A DNA stretch of 64,000 nt, taken from Leptolyngbyaceae cyanobacterium CSU_1_3. GTDB taxonomy: Bacteria; Cyanobacteriota; Cyanobacteriia; Leptolyngbyales; Leptolyngbyaceae. The notes beneath the pieces were generated by a model. It was not told where the DNA came from, searched no databases, and was given only the letters and a program-made list of their open reading frames with translations. Positions 37,910 through 44,146 of this stretch are shown here, piece by piece. The position numbers and the translations under genes were made by a program. The DNA lies in the NCBI GenBank assembly GCA_012034655.1, contig JAAUOZ010000002.1, positions 1-64,000 of the forward strand, read 5' to 3'. Each line of letters starts with the position of its first letter. Positions within the stretch are counted from its first letter, which is position 1.

Positions 37910-38940
37910 ATGAGTCAATACAAGCGTACTTTATCAGAGCTGAAGGGAAAAGCAACACTGTACTGGCCTCAAGAACTACTTCAACAAGCTGGCGAGGTCA
38001 GTGTTCTTCCATTACTCCTGAAGACTCAGGATAAATTTATCAGTGTTCTAACGTTGGCGGATGATGCGCCAGATGCATGGAGAAAACTTGTAGATGTGTC
38101 TGCAGAAATGAAGGGCAACATTTTCCTAAAACATCTGATGGTGTTGAGCGACCTTGCTGGAGAAGCGCTGAACAAATACCCGCCTCTATCTAATTTTTTT
38201 ACGGACGGGGTAATGGAATATACATGGCGTGAACAATTATATTCTTACAAATTCAAACAAATCTCTAAAAAAGTTGCTTTAACCAATTCTTCTTTATTAG
38301 TTGATGGAAAAATCTTATCAAAGGACGAGAACTAAGTGAGAAAATGGAAGACGTTGTTATGCTTTTGCTACATGGTTCTTCTTCAAGCAATAACACCTTT
38401 CCAGAAGATGCTAAAGAAAAATGCTTGCTAGGTAGTCTTCTTGGAAACTCTGAAGAACTGAAAAAGTTCATCAAGCAGAGTTATATCAGGGTAAGTCGTC
38501 AAATTGGAGGAGCTAATGCGGCAAAACTAGGAAAAGTAGCAGAAGACTTTGTGCTCAAAATTTTAAAGCGCGAACTTTCTGGCTGGACTCTTAAAAGAAA
38601 TGGAAAAGTCACAGGTATCAGTCATACAGATGACGGGAGGGAGACTTCTTTCGATATCGTTGCTAAGTCGCCAAACAGCAAATATTTTGCTATTGAGATC
38701 AGTTTTCAATTTACAACTAATGGAACGATTGAAAGAAAAGCTCGTGAAGCTAAGGATAGAGCGCGCTTACTTCAAAGCGCAGGGCATTTTATTTGCTATG
38801 TCATAGATGGTGCAGGAAATATTAATATTAGAGAAAATGCAGTGAAGACAATTTGCAATTATAGTGATTGTACAGTTGCTCTATCCGAGACTGAAATTGT
38901 TCTTCTTTCTCAGTTCTTAAAAGTAGCTTCCATCGAATAA
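37910..38940 (+). pseudogene. PD-(D/E)xK-type restriction endonuclease, split by one frameshift
   Basis: Two adjacent frames look like one gene. The first (37910-38335, MSQYKRTLSELKGKATLYWP) ends ILSKDEN followed by TAA. Adding one base there gives LSEKMEDVVMLLLHG, which runs straight into the second frame (38344-38940). The second part carries ANAAKLGKVAEDFVLKILKR, then SFDIVAKSPNSKYFAIEISF and TNGTIERKAREAKDRARLL, the Asp/Glu and basic residues of a PD-(D/E)xK fold. The joined protein would be about 343 aa. It directly precedes a DNA methyltransferase, so it is the restriction half of an R-M system. Recognition site unknown. Composition is AT-rich relative to neighbours, consistent with transfer. 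Confidence 0.65.
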
Positions 38941-39068
38941 TTGGATTCATAACAAATGGCGCATTGGAGTGAAAATAGTAAAAAATTAAATATAAGATTT
39001 ATTAGAGTTGTAAGCTTGGCGCAACTCAGGCAAATTGACTCAAACTTGCCTGCCATTTATTTTTTTGG

Positions 39069-40703
39069 TTGCCTTATTCAAAGACATCTGATGGTTCGCA
39101 GGTTTCCGCTCCCTTTCTCAATAGTTTTGCTCAGTTCTGCTCTAAATTACACCAACAATCTGTTGTCTGTATCTTAACTTCTCCACCCCATGCTGCGACG
39201 ATGTTGCCGTCCATACAAAGTAGTCTGAAGCTGCATTTATGGATAGCAATCAAAACTAATTTTGCAGCATATATTCACGAAGAAGGAACACTTCGTAAAA
39301 GCCATATTTCTCTCTTGATTTTAAGTCAATATAAGGGATCATTGCAGCATACCAAAACACGAGTTAAGTACTCTTACTGCCCTGCCTGCAATAAAACTAC
39401 TAAAGATTATGGCGGTAAAAAGCACACCTACCATGAATATGGCACACTAATATCAGATGTTTGGAGAGATATAGAGTTTGATCCAGATCAAGGCATTGGT
39501 TCTATCGTCGATCGCTTAAGCGATCTTTTTGGACTTGATCCGTACAGAGATCTGTTTTCAATAGACTCTCAGGACTTGCTTGAATTCTTTGAAGACACAA
39601 GCTCACCCCTTGTAGAAGAATTGGATTTCAATCTTAAAACTGATGTTCAGGTAAGCGGTCACTTATCTAGCCATCTCATCAATGATGATTGCATCAAGGC
39701 ATTACATCGCCTGCCTGATAACTCAATCGATTTTTGTTTTGCCGATCCACCCTATAATCTAAAGAAAAAGTACGATCGTTGGGACGATTCTCTCGAATCA
39801 ACTCAATACTTTGAGTGGTGCGACCGCTGGCTCTCTGAAATGTATAGAGTTCTCAAGCCGGGGCATACTTTAGCTGTGCTAAATATTCCCCATTGGGTAG
39901 TTCGGCACTATCAATTTTTAGCATCAAGAATGCAGTTTCAGGCATGGATCGCTTGGGAAGGATTGAGTTTTCCTGTCAGACTGATTATGCCCGCTCACTA
40001 TGCAATTCTATGTTTCTCCAAGGGATATCCACGATCGCTTCCAGGACTTTCGAGCACGGAGAATTCCTATCTTCAACCTTTAGGTGAAAACTATTGCTTA
40101 AGATCAAGATGTGTCTCTAAAAGAAATGCATTGGGAGCTTCAGATAGAACAGCCATTTCAGACATTTGGCATGATATTCATCGCCTCAAGCATAATAGTC
40201 GTCGAGTCGATCACCCCTGTCAGTTGCCTCCGTTATTAATGCGTCGCTTGTTCGAGTTATTTACCGCTCCAGATGAAATAATTTTAGATTGCTTTAATGG
40301 AGCAGGAACTTCAACCCTGGTAGCCCATCAATTGCATCGAAGATTTATAGGCATTGAGCTTTCCAAGCAGTATCATGAAATCGCTCTAGCAAGACATAGG
40401 CAACTAGAAGAGGGGGGCGATCCATTTGCAAAAGTTAACGCAATTCCAAAAGCAAAAAATAGCCCAGTAGAACGTTTAGTTAAACAAAAATATCAAGTCT
40501 CTAAGAAGACGCTTCAACTAGAAGTCAAGCGAATTTCAAAGGAAATTGGGCATCTGGCCTCTAGAGATGAAGTAGAGAAATTGAGCCAATTTTCTATCAC
40601 CTATTTTGATGAGTACTTCAGTAGCTGGGGTGAGGTTTGCGCTGCGGCTAGAACTACTGGAATGGCTGAAGTTCCTCAAAAAACCGTGCAGTTGGATGAT
40701 TGA
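39069..40703 (+). CDS. DNA methyltransferase with an inactive N-terminal duplicate and a C-terminal HNH-associated repeat
   Basis: The active module spans about 200-450: FADPPYNLKKKYDRWDD (motif IV, DPPY at 226) then ILDCFNGAGTSTLVAH (motif I, FxGxG at 409) in the order of beta-class adenine/N4-cytosine methylases. Residues about 20-165 look like a degraded copy: HLWIAIKTN, RKSHISLLILSQYKG and SDVWRDI align with QAWIAWEGL, PAHYAILCFSKG and SDIWHDI. It lacks DPPY and FxGxG and gains CPAC...KTTKDYGGKKH, a possible zinc site. Residues about 485-533 match the homing-endonuclease-associated repeat. The first codon used here is a TTG; the true start is uncertain. It protects sites against the upstream endonuclease. 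Confidence 0.82.
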   Translation: MPYSKTSDGSQVSAPFLNSFAQFCSKLHQQSVVCILTSPPHAATMLPSIQSSLKLHLWIAIKTNFAAYIHEEGTLRKSHISLLILSQYKGSLQHTKTRVKYSYCPACNKTTKDYGGKKHTYHEYGTLISDVWRDIEFDPDQGIGSIVDRLSDLFGLDPYRDLFSIDSQDLLEFFEDTSSPLVEELDFNLKTDVQVSGHLSSHLINDDCIKALHRLPDNSIDFCFADPPYNLKKKYDRWDDSLESTQYFEWCDRWLSEMYRVLKPGHTLAVLNIPHWVVRHYQFLASRMQFQAWIAWEGLSFPVRLIMPAHYAILCFSKGYPRSLPGLSSTENSYLQPLGENYCLRSRCVSKRNALGASDRTAISDIWHDIHRLKHNSRRVDHPCQLPPLLMRRLFELFTAPDEIILDCFNGAGTSTLVAHQLHRRFIGIELSKQYHEIALARHRQLEEGGDPFAKVNAIPKAKNSPVERLVKQKYQVSKKTLQLEVKRISKEIGHLASRDEVEKLSQFSITYFDEYFSSWGEVCAAARTTGMAEVPQKTVQLDD

Positions 40704-42908: not shown

Positions 42909-44146
42909 TCAATCTCTCAATTGTTCAGGCGCATTCAAGGCGGTTTCAAGAAGCGCTACGATCGCTGTTTTATTTTCATACACGAAAACTAGGTGATCTT
43001 TGGCACGGGTCATTGCCGTGTAAAGCCCTGCTTTGGTTTCAAAATTACGATCGCTGTCTTCGAGTGCTTCAGTCATAAAGTCAATTCCTACCAAGATTAC
43101 TGCCTCAAACTCTACCCCTTTAACCGCATTCCAGGAATCTATAATGACGTAAGAACGATCGAACCTATCTGTAACTCGTTCTCTCGAATTCATCGGTGCA
43201 TGATGATTGATTGCCAGGTTTCTTAGCTCTTTGCTAATCGCTTGCTTAATGGATTTTGCAGATGGATTAGTGGGATCGACTAAAATCGCGATCGACGATT
43301 CTGCATGAGATTCTAGAGCCATTTTTACTTGCAAAGCTACTTCGACTGCCATACGATCGCCACTAACCTGTAAGAGCATAGGACGCAGACCTGAACTTCT
43401 TAATAATCTTTTTCTAGGTTCAACAATTTTGTCGATCGTAGGACTATTTTCGCGCTTTTCAGTTTTCATTCCTGCCTGTTCTAGCGCAGGTTGAATAAAC
43501 TTCCAGGCAAGTTCAAGAATTTCAGGTGCGTTTCGATAGTTCAGATCAAAATTTGCGATCGCCCTACTACATCAATTCCTAGTTTCGACCAACTCCAGTC
43601 GCTTTTTCTGCGATGTGCTTGCCCATAAACAGATTGAGCATTGTCGTAAACAAAAAACAAAGAATTAGTTTGTGGATCTAAAACTTCTAGCAATGCTTGA
43701 AACCATTCATCATAAAAATCTTGTGCTTCGTCGATCAAAATAGCTTGATATTTTTGCTGTGCAAATTTTGATTTTTGGGCAAGCTCGATCACTTTCTGCC
43801 TTGAAGTTTGCTCCTGATCAAACCGATAATCATATTGAAACTGATAAGCCCATTGATGAAATGTACAGCATTCTACTTTTAGCTCTTTTTGTTTGAGTTG
43901 AGTTTCAATCCATCCTTTCATGAAGCGGTTGTAAGATAGAACGAGAACCCGATCGAACTTCTCTGCTACAGCTTTTTCAACTCGATCTTTGAGCACTAAA
44001 GACTTTCCTGAACCTGCAACTCCTCGGATTAGTGAATGGCCACTAAAATTAAAGTTTTTTGCTTTGTTTTGTGGGTCATCTGATATCGTTTGACTTGCCC
44101 TCTGGTTAATCGTTTGCCGAAAGTCGATCCACTGCATTAATGACAC
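42909..44146 (-). pseudogene. UvrD-like superfamily I helicase, one frameshift
   Basis: The first frame (from 44146, MSLMQWIDFRQTI) has Walker A GVAGSGKSLVL and the DEAQ box ILIDEAQDFYDEW, and motif III FVYDNAQSVYG. It stops after GIDVVG. One base is needed near 43552 to continue NFDLNYRNAPEILELAWKFI, then IAILVDPTN, VKGVEFEAVILVG and the motif VI-like GLYTAMTRAKDHLVFVYEN. The joined protein of about 410 aa is a compact SF1A helicase/ATPase lacking the large 1B and 2B insertions of UvrD, similar to short cyanobacterial DNA/RNA helicase-like proteins. It is downstream of the ParA gene on the same strand, 245 bases away. Confidence 0.8.

What the first reader, a model, noticed from the sequence alone, without database searches (positions are those of the whole stretch)
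37910..40703. R-M system whose methyltransferase carries a dead duplicate, zinc-like site and homing-endonuclease-associated repeat
The first half of the methyltransferase aligns with its own catalytic half (for example SDVWRDI with SDIWHDI, and a gap-free 25-residue block ending WIA) but lacks DPPY and FxGxG and has CPAC plus KTTKDYGGKKH. It may act as a target-recognition subunit. The C-terminal homing-endonuclease-associated repeat is an extra DNA-binding unit. The adjacent endonuclease is split by one base.
Basis: partly seen in the sequence, partly recalled or inferred. Interest (0 to 1): 0.5.

Follow-up and report, generated by a model that had tools for sequence, protein, structure and literature searches.

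The report
Methyltransferase fused to its dead twin
A bacterial defence gene pair carries a DNA-marking enzyme built from one working copy and one dead copy of the same domain, and the dead copy, kept almost unchanged across distant bacteria, probably reads the DNA sequence while the live copy does the chemistry.

Summary
Window 37910-38940 is a BanI-type endonuclease (PF24447) split over two frames. Intact relatives (24 loci including the window; bacteria, one archaeal MAG, viral contigs) share a ~590-residue plan: dead N-module, catalytic PF01555 module, C-terminal HNH_repeat-like domain. A BanI-type enzyme lies directly upstream in 21 of the 23 loci that could be judged. The N-module is a beta-class methyltransferase fold by profile and by predicted structure, without DPPY or glycine loop. 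Its CPxC-TTKDYGGKKH-SDVWRDI block is nevertheless the most conserved stretch of the protein (21 of 21 rows). That block is the recognition-region block of active single-domain enzymes, including BamHI-type ones; the catalytic module lacks it. I favour duplication with complementary loss: the N-module reads the site, the C-module methylates, as in EcoP15I and METTL3-METTL14 but in one chain. BanI homology and near-absence of GGYRCC (2 found, 105 expected) point to GGYRCC, hence probably N4-methylcytosine. In the window both genes are frame-broken, by error or decay. Zinc is untested and the HNH_repeat match weak. New variant of a known kind.

The parts
37910..38335 (+). N-terminal piece of the BanI-type restriction endonuclease
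   Evidence: PF24447 positions 1-137 of 338, E 7.6e-46
38344..38940 (+). C-terminal piece of the same endonuclease, in another frame
   Evidence: PF24447 positions 144-335, E 3.8e-76; one ORF in relatives such as L013 668-1705; frame change near 38,307
38956..39068 (+). start (MAHWSE...) and first ~40 residues of the methyltransferase, in a different frame from the rest
   Evidence: P0004 matches residues 1-43 of intact relatives; frame change near 39,060
39069..39578 (+). rest of the dead N-module (degenerate beta-class methyltransferase core without DPPY or motif I loop)
   Evidence: family profile matches the catalytic module, P 4.3e-5, and single-domain methyltransferases, P 1e-13; fold of the relative's N-module Z 11.0 to M.MboIIA
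39378..39473 (+). CPAC-KTTKDYGGKKH-SDVWRDI block: predicted target-recognition element
   Evidence: invariant core in 21 of 21 rows; same block in active BamHI-type and viral single-domain enzymes
39654..40418 (+). catalytic beta-class amino-methyltransferase module (DPPYN, FNGAGT)
   Evidence: PF01555 E 3e-41; PDB matches M.MboIIA, CcrM, AvN4CMT, PvuII
40500..40649 (+). C-terminal helical domain related to the homing-endonuclease-associated (HNH) repeat
   Evidence: PF18780 22 bits, below cut-off 26, in the window; over cut-off in L002, L013, L018 and L026, below in L030

Best explanation
This is a Type II restriction-modification pair of BanI type whose modification enzyme is a single-chain pair of methyltransferase cores. 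SHOWN by sequence and model: the N-half is a methyltransferase fold with no DPPY and no SAM-binding loop; the C-half has both; the N-half keeps a recognition-region block that active single-domain relatives have and the C-half has lost. INFERRED: an ancestral single-domain enzyme was duplicated in tandem and the copies split the work. The N-module became a reader of the target, most likely the GG/CC part of GGYRCC, and the C-module flips and methylates the base, most likely cytosine N4. The enzyme would act on one strand at a time, as EcoP15I Mod does between two subunits. The C-terminal repeat probably adds DNA contacts. In the window both genes carry a frame break, so this copy is either mis-sequenced or inactive; intact copies exist elsewhere.
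For: Same architecture in 24 loci; BanI-type RE upstream in 21, absent in 2 (L016, L025), unknown in 1 (L028 at a contig edge). DYGG exactly once and DPPY exactly once per row in 21 of 21 rows. Mean column entropy 0.34 bits for N residues 139-172, against 0.91 for catalytic motif IV-V and 1.17 for the whole catalytic module. N core (1-128) is closest to the C-module, P 1.9e-5; N tail with the block (129-208) is closest to single-domain enzymes, P 2.4e-10, and poor against C, P 3e-3. Fold of the N-module alone: all 50 listed VIA rows are amino-methyltransferases of the beta-class kind, including METTL14 chains. Four single-domain methyltransferases with CxxC-DYGG lie beside BamHI endonucleases, PF02923. 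M.BamHI makes 4mC in GGATCC (PMC9150344, passages). BanI cuts G/GYRCC (PMC7337904, passages). GGYRCC 0 found/42.1 expected in the window and 2/62.9 in five other stretches of the genome, lowest z of 237 palindromes; 215/318 in 20 same-family genomes. DPPY occurs in proven 4mC Type III enzymes (PMC8259958, passages).
Against: No biochemistry, methylome or DNA complex exists for this family here. GRCGYC is depleted just as strongly (1 of 103), and some same-family genomes lack GGYRCC without a BanI hit, for example G002, 1 of 13.4, so depletion does not prove this system's site. The conserved block 150-164 is disordered in the N-module model, so no contact could be read. Two relatives keep the enzyme without the endonuclease. 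Within the single window protein the duplication signal is weak.
Confidence: 0.7

Rival explanations
1. The N-module is not a reader but a structural stand-in for the second subunit of a beta-class dimer: it holds the catalytic module in its dimer shape and contributes little sequence specificity, which sits in the C-module and the C-terminal repeat.
For: Beta-class enzymes such as CcrM work as dimers (PMC6787082, abstract start seen in the listing); the N-module fold covers the whole core.
Against: The most conserved stretch measured is the recognition-region block, not the core, and it is the same block as in active single-domain enzymes.
Confidence: 0.17
2. The N-module came from fusion with a separate BamHI-like methyltransferase rather than from duplication of the same gene; the function as reader would be the same, so this is a rival on origin only.
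For: The N tail matches single-domain enzymes far better than the C-module.
Against: The N core matches the C-module better than it matches the single-domain set (P 1.9e-5 against 1e-3); the order is collinear over 171 columns. The profiles differ in depth, so this is not decisive.
Confidence: 0.25
3. A decaying locus: the N-module is a relic and the whole system is a pseudogene pair.
For: Both window genes have a frame break; the endonuclease is interrupted in L014, L015 and L018 as well.
Against: The N-module block is invariant in 21 of 21 rows over several phyla, which a relic would not be; the two breaks are the only frame-changing gaps inside the coding regions against L013.
Confidence: 0.08

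Closest known systems
BanI-type Type II restriction-modification (G/GYRCC)
   Same: The endonuclease is PF24447 RE_BanI by sequence, and the site is depleted in the genome.
   Different: In 13 of 16 cyanobacterial RE loci examined the partner is a C5-cytosine methyltransferase (PF00145); here it is an amino-methyltransferase with a dead duplicate.
M.BamHI-type N4-cytosine methyltransferases (beside BamHI, PF02923)
   Same: PF01555 enzyme with CxxC-DYGG recognition-region block, site of the form GGNNCC.
   Different: Single domain with DPPF and DYGG together; no N-module, no C-terminal repeat.
EcoP15I Mod2 (Type III)
   Same: Two methyltransferase cores, one reading DNA and one methylating (PMC4490356, passages).
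   Different: Two copies of one Mod subunit and a helicase Res partner; here one chain, one core dead, no Res.
METTL3-METTL14, MTA1-MTA9
   Same: One live and one dead beta-class core acting together (METTL14 EPPL motif, PMC4490356; the dead state of MTA9 is recalled); the N-module model matches METTL14 chains, Z about 8.
   Different: Eukaryotic, two chains, MT-A70 family; the window protein has no MT-A70 Pfam match.
Single-domain viral-contig methyltransferases L074-L082
   Same: DPPF and KKDYGGKK...DVWNDIHRVKH...DHPCQLP in one domain; the endonuclease beside it has a weak BanI/DpnII match.
   Different: About 320 residues, not duplicated, no CxxC.

Membership tests
BanI-type endonuclease (PF24447) | profile match over the curated cut-off | tested here: met
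   157 and 256.6 bits for the two pieces, cut-off 28
BanI-type endonuclease (PF24447) | one intact reading frame | tested here: not met
   two frames in the window; intact in most relatives
BanI-type endonuclease (PF24447) | cleavage of GGYRCC | not testable with these tools
   only indirect: GGYRCC depletion
beta-class amino-methyltransferase (PF01555), C-module | motif IV DPPY before recognition region before motif I, profile over cut-off | tested here: met
   142.2 bits, cut-off 26.7; order DPPY 226, SDIWHDI 364, FNGAGT 409
beta-class amino-methyltransferase, N-module | fold | tested here: met
   Z 11.0, rmsd 4.2, 166 aligned to 1g60_B; Foldseek best E 4.8e-6 to CcrM, on the N-module of L013
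beta-class amino-methyltransferase, N-module | catalytic motif IV and SAM loop | tested here: not met
   one DPPY and one FxGxGT-type loop per row, both in the C-module, 21 of 21 rows
HNH_repeat (PF18780) | profile over cut-off 26 bits | tested here: inconclusive
   window 22; L002 40.6, L013 26.9, L018 26.9, L026 27.0, L030 24.5
M.BanI-like C5 methyltransferase (PF00145) | PF00145 match | tested here: not met
   no PF00145 in the window protein
Type III Mod | adjacent helicase Res subunit | tested here: not met
   the partner is a BanI-type endonuclease; the UvrD-like pieces at 42.9-44.1 kb lie on the other strand beyond two other genes
zinc-binding recognition domain | four metal ligands in one place | not testable with these tools

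The most novel reading that the evidence does not exclude
A widespread prokaryotic family in which a dead methyltransferase core has become the sequence reader of a single-chain Type II methyltransferase, a one-chain counterpart of METTL3-METTL14. The duplication parcelled out functions that single-domain BamHI-like enzymes combine: the CPxC-TTKDYGGKKH block of the dead core reads the outer GG/CC of a GGNNCC-form site, and the live core writes N4-methylcytosine in GGYRCC, in place of the C5 methylation that most BanI-type systems examined here use.
Probability: 0.45. Interest if true: 0.65.

Novelty: new variant of a known kind. Interest (0 to 1): 0.5.

Why it matters
Division of labour between a live and a dead methyltransferase core is best known from the eukaryotic RNA writer METTL3-METTL14 and, between identical subunits, from EcoP15I. 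A compact one-chain bacterial version with a partner endonuclease gives a clean test: mutate the dead half and read out the methylated sequence. The block shared by BamHI-type and BanI-type amino-methyltransferases also offers a concrete guess for which residues read GG/CC. On the endonuclease tree the methyltransferase type changes at least three times, an example of partner exchange beside one endonuclease family.

Tried and rejected
N-module as an unrelated domain: rejected by fold and profile. N-module hiding a DPPY in an upstream frame: rejected. N-module against the C-terminal repeat: no match (P 0.55). Plasmid and annotated-phage collections: no record covers 80% of the query in one place (one search hit its 5000-record limit). 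Single-sequence comparison of the halves was too weak to rest on. A genome-wide count of GGYRCC was not possible, so stretches were used. Literature: six searches showed, in the titles and abstract starts listed, no paper on a Type II amino-methyltransferase fused to a dead copy of itself; one search found no paper with both the repeat's name and methyltransferase. The library lacks most subscription journals and REBASE was not available, so this is not proof of absence. The fold search of the full model filled its list with the catalytic module only, hence the separate N-module model.

Full report
Observation. In that one protein the similarity of the halves is marginal (BLASTP E 0.023; the best ungapped match, TLISDVWRDI/TAISDIWHDI, just exceeds all of 200 shuffles), so relatives were needed. 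The upstream ORFs 37910-38335 and 38344-38940 are consecutive pieces of one BanI-type endonuclease (PF24447). Aligned with the closest relative L013 (2023 of 2942 aligned bases identical), the coding regions show one frame-changing gap in each gene, near 38,307 and 39,060, and otherwise gaps in multiples of three.

Family. One genome-contig scan (19 loci: L013-L031), the relatives and class searches (L002, L068) and one viral-contig scan (L072, L073) give, with the window, 24 loci of the same architecture; L028 and L031 are cut by contig ends. Hosts named in the records include Cyanobacteria, Chloroflexi, Planctomycetota, Nitrospirae, Acidobacteria, Deltaproteobacteria and an archaeal Methanoperedens MAG. 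L072 and L073 look near-identical, and L028 and L031 come from one MAG, so the loci are not all independent. A BanI-type endonuclease lies directly upstream on the same strand in 21, is absent in 2 (L016, L025) and cannot be judged in 1 (L028, contig edge). It is interrupted in the window, L014, L015 and L018, and cut by the contig end in L020. The 16 full-length methyltransferases aligned run 559-605 residues and mostly begin M-x-H-x-S-E.

The dead module. In A2 (21 rows, some partial) DPPY and the FxGxGT-type loop occur exactly once per row, both in the C-module, and DYGG exactly once per row, in the N-module. Where the catalytic module has DPPY the N-module has a leucine-proline pair or similar. 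The block CPxC-x-(K/R)TTKDYGGKKH...GTLxSDVW is invariant at its core in 21 of 21. Mean column entropy is 0.34 bits for residues 139-172, against 0.91 for catalytic motif IV-V and 1.17 for the catalytic module. The N-module of L013 alone folds to pLDDT 79.6, pTM 0.80, with 135-140 and 150-164 under pLDDT 50. Its best matches are M.MboIIA (Z 11.0, rmsd 4.2, 166 aligned), M.BceJIV, CcrM and M.RsrI, and all 50 listed rows are amino-methyltransferases of the beta-class kind, METTL14 chains among them. The full model (pLDDT 77.4, pTM 0.77) is matched only through the catalytic module, residues 235-493.

Origin of the block. Active single-domain enzymes carry both catalytic motifs and the DYGG block. 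Four lie beside BamHI endonucleases (L003, L004, L127, L128; CRHC-GEI-(R/K)DYGG with DPPF; PF02923 in all four). Another group is in viral contigs (L074-L082; DPPF and KKDYGGKK...DVWNDIHRVKH...DHPCQLP; the block in all nine; whole proteins read for L074 and L080 and aligned for five of the nine) beside an endonuclease with a weak BanI/DpnII match (L074, L080). Profile comparison: N-module against seven of these single-domain proteins P 1e-13; N against C P 4.3e-5; C against single-domain P 5e-62; shuffled columns reach at most 23.4 (against C) and 21.1 (against single-domain), real scores 39.3 and 95.3; the reversed profile gives nothing. Split in two, the N core (1-128) is closest to the C-module (P 1.9e-5; single-domain 1e-3), while the tail with the block (129-208) is closest to single-domain enzymes (P 2.4e-10) and poor against C (P 3e-3). 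That is the pattern expected if a single-domain ancestor was duplicated, the N copy kept the recognition block and lost chemistry, and the C copy did the reverse. Fusion with a related enzyme is not excluded.

Partner exchange. Among 291 cyanobacterial-class genomes searched with PF24447, 19 were over the cut-off. I fetched 16 loci besides the window; two over-cut-off genomes, G238 and G213, were not examined further. The neighbour is a C5-cytosine methyltransferase in 13 and the tandem enzyme in 3. On an endonuclease tree of 26 rows the partner label needs three changes, forced by well-supported branches, so the partner has been exchanged more than once.

Target and base. BanI cuts G/GYRCC (PMC7337904, passages). 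GGYRCC occurs 0 times against 42.1 expected in the window and 2 against 62.9 in five other stretches of this genome. Together this is the lowest z of 237 degenerate palindromes with expectation over 15, but GRCGYC is equally depleted (1 of 103). In 20 same-family genomes pooled it is 215 of 318, with single genomes down to 0 of 9.6 (G033). In three genomes with the tandem system it is 14 of 44.8, 15 of 69.4 and 16 of 26.8, so depletion there is weaker. In 20 loci from the scans (L014-L031, L072, L073) it is 72 of 206.8, against 44 of 100.6 for the control GGRYCC. The GGCGCC form of GGYRCC contains no adenine, so an amino-methyltransferase that protects the whole set must act on cytosine N4. 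M.BamHI does so in GGATCC (PMC9150344, passages), and DPPY is used by proven 4mC Type III enzymes (PMC8259958, passages). 4mC is therefore an inference, not a result.

Mechanism. EcoP15I shows one Mod subunit reading DNA and the other methylating, and its authors extend the idea to METTL3-METTL14, whose METTL14 motif IV is EPPL (PMC4490356, passages). The window family looks like the same division made permanent in one chain. Shown: dead core, retained recognition block, complementary loss, conserved pairing with the endonuclease. Inferred: DNA reading by the N-module, GG/CC contacts, 4mC, one strand per event, DNA binding by the C-terminal repeat. Not shown: zinc; C142, C145, H157, C385 and C390 are invariant, but the viral single-domain relatives lack CxxC.

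State of this copy. With one frame break in each gene and a third split gene nearby (UvrD-like helicase), sequencing or assembly error and true decay cannot be told apart without reads.

Verdict. It is a real and widespread variant of Type II modification enzymes, not found described in the searches made. Interest 0.5.

Noticed in passing
window 42909-43469 and 43541-44146, minus strand: UvrD-like helicase in two ORFs (C-terminal and N-terminal Pfam domains apart), another split gene in the same window.
   Followed up: partly
window and five other stretches of G000 (L118-L122): Other palindromes are also almost absent: GRCGYC 1 of 103, CYCGRG 9 of 99, CTGCAG 1 of 58, as if many restriction systems had acted on this lineage.
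   Followed up: partly
L073 1856-4626 and 6252-7874: In a viral contig the same R-M pair lies about 1.6 kb before an ORF that reads like a large terminase subunit (my reading, not tested by a family search).
   Followed up: no
L016, L025: Full-length tandem methyltransferase without a BanI-type endonuclease upstream; possibly an orphan modification enzyme.
   Followed up: partly
L074-L082: Single-domain ~320-aa methyltransferase with the DYGG block beside an endonuclease with weak DpnII/BanI matches, site unknown.
   Followed up: partly
L015 3821-3946: A relative in a Nitrospirae MAG has a stop between the MAHWSE start and the rest of the methyltransferase, and an interrupted endonuclease.
   Followed up: partly
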